A DNA stretch of 34,976 nucleotides from an uncultured Alphaproteobacteria bacterium. GTDB lineage: Bacteria; Pseudomonadota; Alphaproteobacteria; CAAHEQ01; UBA3637. Numbering within the stretch: the stretch's first letter is position 1; each line of letters opens with the position of its first letter. Positions 6,421 through 26,398 of this stretch are shown here, piece by piece. Both the position numbers and the translations under genes were made by a program. The DNA lies in NCBI GenBank assembly GCA_947627155.1, contig CANQUX010000017.1:1-34976 (forward strand), written 5' to 3'. The notes under the pieces are model-generated. The model did not search any database, had not been told where the DNA came from, and was given only the letters and a program-made list of their open reading frames with translations.

Positions 6421-6900
6421 TTAGTTATGTTGCGTTAAAATACGCCGTTTTACGATATTCCATTCGCGCTTTTTAATATCTTCGCGCTTATCGGCATGAT
6501 TTTTACCGACGGCAACGGCAATTTTCACTTTGGCAACGCCGCGGGCGTTAAAATAAAGCTCTAACGGCACAAGCGTTTTTCCTTTTTGCTCGATGGCACC
6601 GCGTAATTTATTGATTTCCTTTGCGTGAAGCAATAATTTGCGTTTTCGTGTGGCCGATTGTTCGACAAAACCGCCTTTGGCGTTGGTATATTCGGCAATA
6701 TGGGCGTTGATTAAATAAACGGCGCCGTCTTTTTCAATGGAGGCGTAACTTTCGTTAATGGTGGCTCGTCCCGCGCGCAGAGATTTGACTTCTCCGCCGG
6801 TTAGCATAATGCCGGCCTCGTATGTTTCTTGAATCACATAATTAAATCGTGCTTTTTTGTTGGTGGCAACCGTGCCGCTTGAAATGAATGCTTTGCTCAT
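6421..6900 (-). CDS. smpB: SsrA-binding protein SmpB
   Basis: 159 residues, usual length. SmpB binds tmRNA and stalled ribosomes for trans-translation. Family motifs seen are NKKARFNYVIQETYEAGI, GGEVKSLRAGRATINESYA, LLLHAKEINKL and GKTLVPLELYFNARGVAKV. The basic C-terminal tail that enters the mRNA channel is present (KREWNIVKRRIL). Its ATG overlaps the stop of pepP by four bases (ATGA), placing it last in a prmA-pepP-smpB operon. Confidence 0.97.
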   Translation of the reverse strand: MSKAFISSGTVATNKKARFNYVIQETYEAGIMLTGGEVKSLRAGRATINESYASIEKDGAVYLINAHIAEYTNAKGGFVEQSATRKRKLLLHAKEINKLRGAIEQKGKTLVPLELYFNARGVAKVKIAVAVGKNHADKREDIKKREWNIVKRRILTQHN

Positions 6901-16892: not shown

Positions 16893-18134
16893 TTAAAAAT
16901 ACCTCATTAACTCTTCCAATTTTTGATCGGAAATGCTTAAAATTAAAATATCAATTTTATCATCTGCCAATTCTTTTTCACGCTCCGGCCAATGAATACC
17001 CCACGGCGTACCTGTTCCGTTTTCATTGAATCGATGCATTCTGAAATGCGAAAAGGTGGGCATTAAAAACGGAAGCAGATAATAAGAAAAGCTGTCACCG
17101 ATGATATAAGCCCGATACGGCGCGCCTTTTTCATAATCCGAAAACCGAAACTGCTTATCCCGATGAATTTTTAAAGCGGCTTTATCTTTATAAATATAAT
17201 GTTGATATTGCGTTTCGCCGTAATCAATGCCGTTTAAGTAATTAGACCCGTTATAAAAATACGGTTTTTGCGTATATTGATAAGGCGACCACACTTTTTT
17301 TGTTAATTCAATATGATAATCATCGGGCGTGACGGCACGAATGTCTTTAAAATCTTTTTGTATGGCTTTCATTAACAGCTGATAGGCTTCAAACGCTCCG
17401 TCTTCCGACCAATGCGTGTCGGTTTTGTAAATTAACGGAAATTGACTGCGCGCTTGAGAAATAAGGTGTTTTTCAATCGGCACCACGGTTATTATGTCTT
17501 GCACAGCCGTTTCAACCTGTTCCGCAACGGAGGGATTGTTTTCTCTTAAAATATAATCAGGCATCCATTTGTGATAAATGCGAGAGACTTCCGGCGGAAT
17601 AATTAAATAGACTTTAATGTTATGCTCTTTGGCAAAATCGGCCATTTTTTGAACGTTTTTTCGAAGGAGGCTGATTTGTTTGGGTGTGAATAAATAAGAG
17701 TTTTGATAAACGGATAAAATCGGCAAATTACGGGAAGCGTTTAGACTCGAAAAGATAAAATTTTCTTTACCGATGATTTGCCTTTGTGTTCCCAAATCGC
17801 GCCCCAAACCCGATTCGAAATAAAAATCAATCAGCTCAGGTCGTTTCGGCAAATGATCGGAGATGTATTTTTCAAGCTTTTCGCTTTGCGTCCAAAAATA
17901 ATGCGGAAATTTTTCTAAATTGCGCCGTTCACGCACACTTTTCGTTTGTGTTGTATCAGGCGTAAGACCAATGGTTAATAAACCGCATAAAGGAAAAAGA
18001 ATAAACAAGCAAAGAAGGAATGTATGTATGTATGTATGTATGTATGTATGTATGTATGTATGTAGTCTTTGTTGGCGAGCATTTTTTTCGGCTTTAAAAA
18101 GGGGGATAAATTTTTCATTTGGTTTCCTATGCAT
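16893..18134 (-). CDS. AlgJ/AlgX-like SGNH O-acetyltransferase, phase-variable
   Basis: 413 residues in the open frame. A membrane anchor (about residues 38-57) precedes a periplasmic SGNH-hydrolase-like domain with the AlgJ/AlgX catalytic set: Asp239 and His241 in KTDTHWSEDGA, Ser348 in IIGDSFSYY. These proteins attach acetyl groups delivered by an MBOAT partner, here encoded directly downstream. Residues 25-38 are YIHT repeats coded by a tetranucleotide tract, so slippage changes frame. The ATG at 18134 sits at the predicted transcription start with no ribosome site. A second ATG at 18118 has AGGA 6 bases upstream but lies in a different frame and reaches a stop soon after the repeat in this copy. 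The expression state is therefore uncertain. Family sure; acceptor unknown. Confidence 0.9.
   Translation of the reverse strand: MHRKPNEKFIPLFKAEKNARQQRLHTYIHTYIHTYIHTFLLCLFILFPLCGLLTIGLTPDTTQTKSVRERRNLEKFPHYFWTQSEKLEKYISDHLPKRPELIDFYFESGLGRDLGTQRQIIGKENFIFSSLNASRNLPILSVYQNSYLFTPKQISLLRKNVQKMADFAKEHNIKVYLIIPPEVSRIYHKWMPDYILRENNPSVAEQVETAVQDIITVVPIEKHLISQARSQFPLIYKTDTHWSEDGAFEAYQLLMKAIQKDFKDIRAVTPDDYHIELTKKVWSPYQYTQKPYFYNGSNYLNGIDYGETQYQHYIYKDKAALKIHRDKQFRFSDYEKGAPYRAYIIGDSFSYYLLPFLMPTFSHFRMHRFNENGTGTPWGIHWPEREKELADDKIDILILSISDQKLEELMRYF
18020..18064 (-). repeat. Tetranucleotide repeat, about 11 copies (ATGT/TACA)
   Basis: 45 bases with perfect 4-base periodicity (11.25 units) inside the 5' coding part of the AlgJ-like gene. 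The unit is not a multiple of three, so each gain or loss shifts the frame. This is the classic structure of a slipped-strand contingency locus. Confidence 0.97.
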
Positions 18135-18141
18135 ACAATTT

Positions 18142-18170
18142 ACTATATTCGTTCCTCACAAAAATGTCAA
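18142..18170 (-). promoter_or_regulatory. Strong promoter of the AlgJ-like/MBOAT operon
   Basis: Minus strand TTGACA (18165-18170), exactly 17 bases, TATAGT (18142-18147). The expected transcription start is about 18135, directly before or at the ATG at 18134. That makes this ATG leaderless, and the ATG at 18118 the first one with a Shine-Dalgarno site. Confidence 0.85.
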
Positions 18171-18200
18171 TAAAAAAATAAGAGCCGAAAAAATATAAAA

Positions 18201-18230
18201 AAAAGCACCGCTTTCGCAGTGCTTTTTTTA
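18201..18230 (-). terminator. Terminator of the 10-codon Cys-peptide gene
   Basis: Read on the minus strand: GCACTGC, GAAA tetraloop, GCGGTGC, with flanking A and T runs that extend the stem and give the U tract. It starts 10 bases after the stop of the tiny ORF. It could act on both strands, but no plus-strand gene ends here. Confidence 0.88.
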
Positions 18231-18240
18231 TGCAAAGAAT

Positions 18241-18273
18241 TTATTTCTTTGTTCCACATCCGCAACCCGGCAT
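18241..18273 (-). CDS. 10-residue Cys-containing peptide MPGCGCGTKK
   Basis: Eleven codons including stop. AAGGAGGGG (18281-18289) is placed 7 bases before the ATG, one of the best ribosome sites in the window, and a strong terminator follows 10 bases after the stop. An in-frame upstream ATG would give 18 residues, but the ribosome site lies inside that extension. The CGCG motif with a basic end could bind metal or act as a cysteine-sensing leader for the downstream AlgJ-like operon, although that operon has its own promoter past the terminator. I do not recognise the peptide. The layout makes translation likely; function is unknown. Confidence 0.6.
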   Translation of the reverse strand: MPGCGCGTKK

Positions 18274-18318
18274 AATGCTCCCCCTCCTTTCGAACATATT
18301 ATCGTATCCCACAAACTC

Positions 18319-18347
18319 TATGTAAGAATTAAAATAACACTTGTCAA
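18319..18347 (-). promoter_or_regulatory. Possible promoter of the tiny Cys-peptide gene
   Basis: Minus strand TTGACA (18342-18347), 17 bases, TACATA (18319-18324). The -35 is perfect, the -10 weak. Its -35 overlaps the -35 of the divergent lipoprotein promoter. Confidence 0.5.
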
Positions 18348-18369
18348 GACGATTTGAATTTGTTATATT
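18341..18369 (+). promoter_or_regulatory. Promoter of the lipoprotein hydrolase gene (leaderless start)
   Basis: TTGTCA (18341-18346), 17 bases, TATATT (18364-18369). The predicted transcription start is 18376-18377, coinciding with the ATG at 18377, and no ribosome site is present, so the mRNA is probably leaderless. Confidence 0.75.
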
Positions 18370-18376
18370 AACGTCT

Positions 18377-19132
18377 ATGAAAAAATTATTTGCTTTTTTA
18401 GGCCTCTTTTTTTTAACGGCTTGCGCCACGCAAAACCCGTTGACGGATTTTCGATTTCAAACGCAACCGGCTCCGCCGTATATTTTGGCAAGCTGGTATC
18501 GCATTAACGCTCCCGGCGAGCCCGTTCGCATTTATATTGAGGGCGACGGTGCCGCTTTTAATGCCGACGGTACTCCTTCGGATAATCCCACACCGCAAGA
18601 AGCGTTTTGGCGCAAAGTTGCGGCTGATGATCCGCACGCCAACACGGCCTATTTGGGGCGTCCCTGTCAATATATGCAAGCGGGGGCCTGTTCGCAAGTT
18701 GATTGGACAACCGGTCGGTTTTCACCGCAAATTGTGCGCAGTATGAATAGTGCCGTAACGGCGCTCATGAAAAAAGCACAAACCGATCAGGCGGTGTTAA
18801 TCGGCTATTCGGGCGGTGCGCAAATTGCCGGATTGATTGCCGTTCATGATCCGCATGTGGTGAAAGTGATTACCGTTGCCGGTGTGTTGGATACCGCCGC
18901 ATGGACGGCTTATCATCATGACACGCCCTTAAAAGAATCGCTGAATTTAAAAGATTATCAAATTGAATTTTTAAAAATTCCGCAAATTCATTACGTCGGT
19001 GAAAAAGATACCGTTGTTCCGCCCGCGCTCACAAAAGCTTTCGTGCAAGAGGCAGCGCCGATTGTAACCGTTCGAAAAGCAACGCATAATGACGGGTTTG
19101 AGTCAATTTTAAACGAATTATATCAACAATAG
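18377..19132 (+). CDS. Alpha/beta-hydrolase lipoprotein
   Basis: 251 residues from the ATG at 18377. A type II signal peptide ends in the lipobox FLTAC with the lipidated cysteine at residue 16, so the protein sits on a membrane facing the periplasm. The hydrolase nucleophile motif is GYSGG (Ser145). The likely acid is Asp211 (GEKDTVVP) and the histidine His237 (THNDG), giving a complete catalytic triad. Substrate unknown; esterase or lipase is the family default. A longer in-frame start at 18341 lies within the promoter and is rejected. The ELM1-family gene follows after 9 bases, so they form an operon. Confidence 0.85.
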   Translation: MKKLFAFLGLFFLTACATQNPLTDFRFQTQPAPPYILASWYRINAPGEPVRIYIEGDGAAFNADGTPSDNPTPQEAFWRKVAADDPHANTAYLGRPCQYMQAGACSQVDWTTGRFSPQIVRSMNSAVTALMKKAQTDQAVLIGYSGGAQIAGLIAVHDPHVVKVITVAGVLDTAAWTAYHHDTPLKESLNLKDYQIEFLKIPQIHYVGEKDTVVPPALTKAFVQEAAPIVTVRKATHNDGFESILNELYQQ

Positions 19133-25707: not shown

Positions 25708-26310
25708 TTATAAAGACATCTTCCTAAAAAGTTTTTTGCTTTCCAGAGAGAGGAAGGAAGGAAGGAAGGAAGGAAGGAAGGAAGGAAGGAAGGAAGGAAG
25801 AGAAGAAGAAAAAAGTTTATTTTCTATATTTTGAATTTTTTCTTGTATTAAATTATATTCCCGACTCCAATCGATTGCCGGAATAATAATATTTTTATCT
25901 TTCCATTCCGTTTGTAAAAAACAAGCATACGCCTTTAAAATTTTTTGAAAATCCTTATATTTTATTTGACAAAATCGTAAAGATTTCCCCGGCAGATATG
26001 TTAAAATAAATCCATATTGATGATTATATAAAAAAGAGGATTTTCCCTGAATGCGTATCGGTTTTACGGTTAAAATTTTTGAATTTTTTTCCAGTGTTTC
26101 ATAAACGCGGAACAATTGTTCAATACTTTCCGGTTTATGATTCACACAAAGCTTAATCAAAAATTTTTCATCGATTGTTTTAACAACAAAATTAAGGGAT
26201 CCGGATCCGCGCTTTAATTTCTGATGCTCGATAATCGGTTTTTGCAAAAGTGTTTCCTGCAAAAATCGGATAAAGTCAGAAGTATTAAAATTTTTAAAAA
26301 CCGGATTCAT
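25708..26310 (-). CDS. N-terminal half of LicA/APH-like kinase, truncated by repeat frameshift
   Basis: The ATG at 26310 has AAAGG about 7 bases upstream and sits about 15 bases after the predicted transcription start; the longer ORF start at 26382 lies upstream of the promoter. The N-lobe is recognisable: glycine-rich RGSGSLNFVVKT, then FLIKLC with the ATP lysine, and YGFILTYLPGKSLRF as hinge. The frame runs through the tetranucleotide tract as LPSF repeats and stops at 25708, before the catalytic loop. Relatives include choline kinase LicA, which drives phosphorylcholine decoration of LPS in Haemophilus and is switched by CAAT repeats. The true substrate here is unknown. Confidence 0.85.
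   Translation of the reverse strand: MNPVFKNFNTSDFIRFLQETLLQKPIIEHQKLKRGSGSLNFVVKTIDEKFLIKLCVNHKPESIEQLFRVYETLEKNSKILTVKPIRIQGKSSFLYNHQYGFILTYLPGKSLRFCQIKYKDFQKILKAYACFLQTEWKDKNIIIPAIDWSREYNLIQEKIQNIENKLFSSSLPSFLPSFLPSFLPSFLSLESKKLFRKMSL
25751..25800 (-). repeat. Tetranucleotide repeat, about 12 copies (GGAA/TTCC)
   Basis: 50 bases of perfect 4-base periodicity (12.5 units) inside the kinase gene. Change by one unit shifts the frame. The count in this sequence leaves the gene frameshifted. Confidence 0.97.
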
Positions 26311-26331
26311 TTTAAACCTTTCAAGAATACT

Positions 26332-26358
26332 ATTATATGTTTTTGGAGAAAAAATCAA
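26332..26358 (-). promoter_or_regulatory. Promoter of the phase-variable kinase
   Basis: Minus strand TATAAT (26332-26337), a perfect -10, with TTGATT (26353-26358) 15 bases upstream, a slightly short spacing. Confidence 0.6.
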
Positions 26359-26369
26359 GTAAATTATGC

Positions 26370-26398
26370 TTGCTTTTAACAAAAAAATAAATTATGCT
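26370..26398 (+). promoter_or_regulatory. Promoter of the uracil-DNA glycosylase gene
   Basis: TTGCTT (26370-26375), 17 bases, TATGCT (26393-26398), divergent from the kinase promoter. Confidence 0.5.

What the first reader, a model, noticed from the sequence alone, without database searches (positions are those of the whole stretch)
18201..18347. Free-standing gene for a 10-residue CGCG peptide
Within about 150 bases there is a TTGACA -35, a consensus ribosome site at ideal spacing, an 11-codon ORF (MPGCGCGTKK) and a GAAA-loop terminator. Annotation pipelines ignore ORFs this short. The two Cys in a CGCG motif could ligate a metal or carry a modification. Alternatively it could be a cysteine-sensing leader, since it precedes a terminator and then the AlgJ-like operon.
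Basis: partly seen in the sequence, partly recalled or inferred. Interest (0 to 1): 0.75.

Follow-up and report, generated by a model that had tools for sequence, protein, structure and literature searches.

The report
Tiny gene for ten-residue cysteine peptide
Uncultured gut bacteria carry a complete, strongly conserved gene that makes a peptide of only about ten amino acids with two cysteines, too short for ordinary annotation to see, and it may be a redox or iron-handling helper.

Summary
Window 18241-18273(-) encodes MPGCGCGTKK behind TTGACA-17-TACATA and GAAAGGAGG, followed by an intrinsic terminator. Relatives settle that it is a gene: 21 of 43 genomes of the family carry it (reversed-pattern control 0). 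Among the 17 starting MPGCGCGTKK there are 13 distinct 30-base alleles, and all 9 variable sites are third codon positions, while each 30-base flank varies at 30 of 30 sites. Terminator stems differ in sequence. The leader idea fails: the gene after the terminator is convergent in 14 of 21 genomes and differs among the rest, and the AlgJ-like gene has its own promoter-like site. It is therefore a free-standing ultra-short gene, facing a lipoprotein hydrolase gene in 20 of 21 genomes with overlapping -35 boxes. A GTDB-wide scan found matching tiny genes only in these bacteria and three Omnitrophota, where M(S/G)CGCGCGTKKKKKKAKKK sits between an Rrf2 regulator and rubredoxin or superoxide reductase. 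I think it is an abundant basic dithiol peptide for thiol-disulfide or iron-sulfur chemistry: gene about 0.96, mechanism about 0.4.

The parts
18241..18273 (-). ORF MPGCGCGTKK, 10 codons plus TAA
   Evidence: codon-level conservation in relatives
18283..18291 (-). Shine-Dalgarno GAAAGGAGG, 9 bases between GGAGG and ATG
   Evidence: pairing energy above all 29 window genes compared; all 21 family members at or below -11.9 kcal/mol
18342..18347 (-). -35 TTGACA of the peptide gene, overlapping the -35 of the divergent gene
   Evidence: TTGACA present in all 21 members
18319..18324 (-). candidate -10 TACATA at 17-base spacing (weak match)
18198..18229 (-). intrinsic terminator hairpin (GAAA loop) followed by T-rich run
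   Evidence: hairpin plus T-run found by the script in 20 of 21 members, with different stem sequences
18341..18346 (+). -35 TTGTCA of the divergent hydrolase gene
18364..18369 (+). -10 TATATT of the divergent hydrolase gene, 7 bases before its ATG
18377..19132 (+). divergent lipoprotein-like serine hydrolase (FSH1-like), no Shine-Dalgarno, probably leaderless
   Evidence: PF03959 E 2.5e-6; (-1.7 kcal/mol)
18142..18170 (-). separate promoter-like site TTGACA-17-TATAGT of the AlgJ-like gene downstream of the terminator

Best explanation
Shown: this is a complete, free-standing, protein-coding gene for a 10-residue peptide (10-13 residues in most relatives, 21 in one), with a promoter-like site of its own, a very strong ribosome site and a terminator, under strong purifying selection for (P)GCGCG(T/S)K. 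Inferred: it is made in quantity and stays in the cytosol (no signal sequence). Inferred mechanism: it is a basic dithiol peptide whose CGC pair does redox or iron chemistry, either thiol-disulfide exchange (CGC is a known minimal mimic of protein disulfide isomerase) or temporary ligation and hand-off of Fe or an Fe-S cluster, as the C-terminal CGCG tail of A-type Fe-S carriers does. The Lys tail would make the thiols more reactive or steer the peptide to acidic partners. I weigh thiol-disulfide and Fe-S roles about equally.
For: Coding: 13 alleles, variable sites 0/0/9 by codon position, flanks 30/30 variable. Distribution: 21 of 43 family genomes in 8 of 13 genera; on the tree of the neighbouring hydrolase, presence is one split with support 100/99 and 0 of 500 shuffles as low. 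High translation expected: strongest ribosome site of 29 window genes compared. Redox link: three Omnitrophota genomes hold M(S/G)CGCGCGTKKKKKKAKKK (codon differences 9 synonymous to 1 for the distant pairs) directly after an Rrf2 regulator and before rubredoxin (my reading of the translation) or desulfoferrodoxin; in the rubredoxin loci redoxin, FAD/NAD reductase, flavodiiron, rubrerythrin, glutaredoxin and thioredoxin-reductase-like genes follow. Iron-sulfur link: E. coli IscA ends CGCGESFHV; A-type carriers (PF01521) are found in 0 of 43 family genomes although SufB/D is in 39 of 43, and the window genome's suf cluster runs to a SufT-like gene and then mreB with no A-type carrier. No convincing glutathione synthetase: PF02955 in 4 of 43, all partial matches. 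Chemistry: passages of PMC4316792 state that CGC has a reduction potential of -167 mV and that CGC and RKCGC peptides mimic PDI; a passage of PMC7730481 says the C-terminal CxC of ISCA is needed to take the [2Fe-2S] cluster from the donor.
Against: 22 of 43 family genomes lack the pattern, although none of the 43 has an A-type carrier, so the peptide is not a general replacement. In the alphaproteobacteria its constant neighbour is a lipoprotein hydrolase, not a redox gene. The Omnitrophota peptides are rare (3 of 79 in that family) and may be convergent, not homologous. 0 of 79 genomes of that Omnitrophota family have A-type carriers either, so their absence is uninformative there. Expression, location, redox state and metal binding are all untested.
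Confidence: 0.42

Rival explanations
1. Metallothionein-like metal buffer: the CGC pair of two or more peptides binds Cu(I) or Zn(II), protecting the cell from metal stress.
For: CxC is a common soft-metal ligand motif (recalled); one relative has a third CG repeat, CGCGCG (G005), and the Omnitrophota forms have three Cys.
Against: No metal transport or metal regulator gene was recognised among the neighbours I read or ran against Pfam; the Omnitrophota gene set is an O2/ROS set, not a metal-resistance set.
Confidence: 0.2
2. RiPP precursor: the peptide is the substrate of an unlinked enzyme that modifies or crosslinks the cysteines.
For: Tiny precursor genes exist, such as the 7-codon microcin C precursor (PMC6495379, abstract in listing). 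Complete conservation of GCGCG would fit a core.
Against: No modification enzyme among the seven window neighbours run against Pfam, and downstream neighbours vary. No NCBIfam match for the 21-residue member.
Confidence: 0.17
3. The gene works through its promoter or transcript: the overlapping, opposed -35 boxes make transcription of peptide gene and hydrolase gene mutually exclusive, and the peptide is incidental.
For: TTGACA/TTGTCA overlap in 20 of 20 hydrolase-linked loci; hydrolase -10 at 17-base spacing in 19 of 20.
Against: It does not explain third-position-only variation of the ORF, and G016 keeps the peptide at another locus without the hydrolase.
Confidence: 0.08
4. Cysteine-sensing leader/attenuator of the AlgJ-like operon.
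For: In the window the ORF and terminator precede the AlgJ-like gene on the same strand.
Against: That neighbour occurs in 4 of 21 loci; downstream genes are convergent in 14 of 21; the AlgJ-like gene has its own promoter-like site; only two Cys codons.
Confidence: 0.03
5. Non-coding small RNA with a chance ORF.
For: Predicted transcript is only about 130 bases.
Against: The ORF is the conserved part, by codon; terminator stems and flanks are not conserved in sequence; no Rfam match other than a tRNA elsewhere in the window.
Confidence: 0.02

Closest known systems
C-terminal CGCG tail of A-type Fe-S carriers (IscA/SufA/ErpA, PF01521)
   Same: Cys-Gly-Cys-Gly followed by a polar residue; E. coli IscA ends CGCGESFHV.
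   Different: The peptide is only the motif plus a basic tail, with no carrier domain and no third Cys; homology is not shown.
CGC / RKCGC synthetic peptides as disulfide-isomerase mimics (Woycechowsky and Raines 2003; Wang et al. 2011, both as cited in PMC4316792)
   Same: Short Cys-Gly-Cys peptide, in one case with adjacent basic residues.
   Different: Those are synthetic reagents; this is encoded by a gene under selection. Activity untested.
Omnitrophota M(S/G)CGCGCGTKKKKKKAKKK peptides (L048, L049, L056)
   Same: Tiny SD-led ORF, N-terminal CGCG, then T and a Lys run.
   Different: 19 residues, three Cys, in an Rrf2-rubredoxin/superoxide-reductase gene set; common descent not shown.
Microcin C precursor mccA (7 codons)
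   Same: Ultra-short bacterial gene whose product matters.
   Different: mccA goes with its own maturation genes; no such genes are seen here.
Amino-acid leader peptides
   Same: Short ORF then terminator hairpin.
   Different: No conserved downstream gene; most neighbours convergent.

Membership tests
Leader peptide / attenuator | conserved codirectional target gene downstream | tested here: not met
   14 of 21 downstream genes convergent; the 7 codirectional ones are four AlgJ-like plus three others
Leader peptide / attenuator | run of codons for the sensed amino acid | tested here: not met
   two separated Cys codons in 20 of 21 members, three in G005
Leader peptide / attenuator | alternative antiterminator structure | not tested
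   -
A-type Fe-S carrier (PF01521) | Fe-S_biosyn domain of about 100 residues | tested here: not met
   peptide is 10-21 residues; PF01521 in 0 of 43 family genomes
A-type Fe-S carrier (PF01521) | CGCG motif with polar residue after it | tested here: met
   CGCGT or CGCGS in 21 of 21; E. coli IscA CGCGESF
A-type Fe-S carrier (PF01521) | binds a [2Fe-2S] or [4Fe-4S] cluster | not testable with these tools
   -
CGC dithiol catalyst | Cys-Gly-Cys in a short peptide | tested here: met
   21 of 21 members
CGC dithiol catalyst | disulfide exchange activity | not testable with these tools
   -
RiPP precursor | modification enzyme encoded nearby | tested here: not met
   seven window genes around it: FSH1, AlgX-like, MBOAT, ELM1, BacA, PGK, RecR; relatives' neighbours not run against Pfam
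RiPP precursor | modified product | not testable with these tools
   -
Non-coding sRNA | conservation of structure rather than codons | tested here: not met
   variable sites 0/0/9 by codon position; terminator stems differ
Metallothionein-like | Cys-dense metal-binding peptide | tested here: inconclusive
   2 Cys in 10 residues; metal binding not testable

The most novel reading that the evidence does not exclude
A gene-encoded cofactor-like decapeptide: a ribosomally made dithiol that takes the place of small-molecule thiols and/or of the CGCG tail of A-type Fe-S carriers in anaerobes that have kept SUF but lost the carriers and have no recognisable glutathione synthesis, with a parallel form in the O2-defence gene set of Omnitrophota.
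Probability: 0.22. Interest if true: 0.92.

Novelty: new variant of a known kind. Interest (0 to 1): 0.72.

Why it matters
It shows by codon-level conservation that a stand-alone bacterial gene can be ten codons long, well under the length limits of common gene finders (recalled), so a class of genes is being missed. If the redox or Fe-S reading holds, it offers a concrete candidate for a question left open by Vinella et al. 2009 (PMC2682760, passage seen): what does the job of A-type carriers in organisms that have SUF or ISC parts but no such carrier. The peptide is cheap to synthesise and test.

Tried and rejected
Leader/attenuator and sRNA readings were tested by synteny and codon variation and rejected. 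A longer ORF from upstream in-frame ATGs (MFERRGSIMPGCGCGTKK) was rejected: the upstream start is seen only in some members and the Shine-Dalgarno favours MPG. Wider spread: 0 of 286 genomes outside the family in the class draw (2 of 289, both in the family). In the GTDB scan (26 stretches) 18 were this alphaproteobacterial group and 4 Omnitrophota; the Photobacterium and Patescibacteria hits lie inside longer proteins, and the Verrucomicrobia and Campylobacterales hits have no start in frame near the site. Viral contigs: 0 for the strict pattern; one relaxed match without a start between the ribosome site and the core. Of the relaxed Omnitrophota matches (25 of 79 genomes), 18 further loci that I read had no start codon in the gap; matches without a fetched locus were not read. 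One Omnitrophota hit (L062, 42 aa, GCGCGSKK plus a weak rubrerythrin-like match below its cut-off) stands in another gene context and is left aside. PDB search with the 21-residue member: 0 hits. Literature: no held paper contains MPGCGCGTKK or CGCGTKK. A search for CGCGG with radical SAM or RiPP brought no paper that I used; I opened none of them. Searches gave only the papers cited here or nothing used. No structure was predicted: ten residues would not give a meaningful model. Whole-genome co-occurrence could not be done.

Limits of counts: the hydrolase tree used 29 rows of 43 genomes: 30 loci had been fetched (L067-L096), G005 was dropped because its fetched copy is not the peptide-linked one, and 13 genomes had no fetched locus in that set. 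G016 was labelled as a carrier although its peptide gene is elsewhere. In one search two first rows are spurious overlapping ORFs (G023, G027); I judged those two loci by the next row and by likeness to relatives. G041's hairpin was missed by the script's T-run filter; it is visible by eye with a weaker T-run.

Full report
Observation. The sequence was re-read. On the minus strand: TTGACA (18347-18342), 17 bases, TACATA (18324-18319), GAAAGGAGG (18291-18283), ORF 18273-18241 (ATG CCG GGT TGC GGA TGT GGA ACA AAG AAA TAA, MPGCGCGTKK), hairpin 18229-18198 with a GAAA loop. The weakest part is the -10 (3 of 6 matches).

Is it a gene? BLAST of the 171-base region found matches in 17 of 43 genomes of the family. 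Some of these, such as the two overlapping G019 matches, cover only the terminator hairpin. A pattern for ribosome site plus GCGCG found 21 of 43 genomes (13 of 27 well-assembled ones; 8 of 13 genera; reversed-pattern control 0). The products are MPGCGCGTKK (6 genomes), MPGCGCGTKKK (10), MPGCGCGTKKGK (G010), MPGCGCGCGTKKK (G005), MMDGCGCGTKKK (G017), MPGCGCGSKGTKK (G040) and MILYADGCGCGSKGGKKGSAK (G037). In the 17 that start MPGCGCGTKK there are 13 distinct 30-base alleles; nine sites vary and every one is a third codon position; each 30-base flank tested varies at 30 of 30 sites. That is purifying selection on a peptide. A hairpin with a T-run follows in 20 of 21 by script, with stems that differ in sequence. 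The pairing of the ribosome site with the 16S tail (tail sequence recalled) is stronger than for any of 29 window genes compared, even when the best start of each was allowed.

Is it a leader? No. The next gene after the terminator is convergent in 14 of 21 loci (in several a MerR-like gene followed by an IHF-like gene, named from sequence by eye) and codirectional in 7, of which four are AlgJ-like and three are others. In the window the AlgJ-like gene has its own TTGACA-17-TATAGT after the terminator.

Upstream neighbour. In 20 of 21 loci the gene faces a lipoprotein-like serine hydrolase (FSH1 match); in G016 it stands elsewhere. In G005 the facing gene is a more distant copy (40% identity). 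The two -35 boxes overlap on opposite strands (cTTGACAAg read both ways), and the hydrolase -10 lies 17 bases away in 19 of 20. In 16 of 20 the hydrolase ATG is 6-7 bases after the -10, so its mRNA is probably leaderless; its ribosome-site energy in the window is only -1.7. The two promoters could not both hold polymerase at once (inference). On the hydrolase tree, carriers and non-carriers are separated by one branch with support 100/99 (29 rows): one gain or one loss, then descent with the locus.

Spread. None of 286 alphaproteobacterial genomes outside the family matched. A scan of the genome-contig collection, one genome for each of 84,980 GTDB species, gave 26 stretches: 18 are this group (record titles such as sheep, yak and roe deer rectum, colon, cecum or rumen) and 4 are Omnitrophota. 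Three Omnitrophota have a tiny ORF with a strong ribosome site, M(S/G)CGCGCGTKKKKKKAKKK; between the distant pairs 9 codon changes are synonymous and 1 is not. Their neighbours: upstream an Rrf2 regulator (Pfam match in L121, the genome of L048; the cut gene in L049 is alike by eye; L056 ends before that point), then rubredoxin (L049; my reading of the translation) or desulfoferrodoxin (L121, Pfam). In L049 there follow redoxin, FAD/NAD reductase, flavodiiron-type protein, PNPOx, rubrerythrin, glutaredoxin and thioredoxin reductase (Pfam); L056 shows the same series by eye. This is an anaerobe's O2/ROS defence set. Whether these peptides descend from the same gene as the alphaproteobacterial ones cannot be shown with ten residues.

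What it probably does. Three facts point to thiol or iron-sulfur chemistry. (1) CGC is a minimal dithiol: passages of PMC4316792 give -167 mV and PDI-like activity of CGC and RKCGC. (2) CGCG plus a polar residue is the tail of an A-type Fe-S carrier (E. coli IscA CGCGESFHV), and the CxC of such carriers takes up the cluster (PMC7730481 passage). (3) These bacteria have SUF (39 of 43) but no A-type carrier (0 of 43; the control rings in 9 of 14 known genomes), although nearly all Alphaproteobacteria examined in PMC2682760 have two (passages). The window genome's suf cluster runs to a SufT-like gene and then mreB (SufC, SufD and SufS positions are my reading of ORF sizes and order). They also lack a convincing glutathione synthetase (4 of 43 partial matches). 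Against this: half the family does without the peptide under the same conditions, and the hydrolase link is unexplained. I put thiol-disulfide and Fe-S roles together at about 0.42, metal buffer 0.2, RiPP 0.17.

Novelty. No held paper contains the peptide. The gene family appears new; as a kind it is an extreme small-protein gene, comparable in size only to a few cases known to me, such as the 7-codon microcin C precursor (PMC6495379, abstract in listing).

Noticed in passing
18020-18064 (-), inside the AlgJ-like ORF: Perfect tetranucleotide tract (ATGT x 11.2). Relatives have 9, 13 and 2 units; the long frame reads through in G000 and G028 but is shifted in G026 and G027. Looks like a phase-variable switch of polysaccharide O-acetylation.
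   Followed up: partly
25751-25805: Second tetranucleotide tract, AGGA x 13.5, within a 224-residue minus-strand ORF 25708-26382; possibly another phase-variable gene.
   Followed up: no
18134 (-) and about 18118 (-): The AlgJ-like gene has two candidate starts in different frames: one 7 bases after its -10 (leaderless, read through in the window) and one behind AGGA; the repeat length decides which reads through.
   Followed up: partly
18341-18377 (+): The divergent hydrolase appears leaderless (ATG 6-7 bases after the -10) in 16 of 20 loci.
   Followed up: partly
L137 (G000:C4:87500-99000): suf cluster of the window genome with a small ORF that looks MazG-like by eye (no Pfam match) after sufB and no A-type carrier at its end.
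   Followed up: partly
L062, about 6637-6780: Omnitrophota 42-residue protein GMGCGCGSKK...CASCGKMSDTSKTCCGKPMKKKK, weak rubrerythrin-like match below cut-off: a CGCG head fused to a rubredoxin-like knuckle.
   Followed up: no
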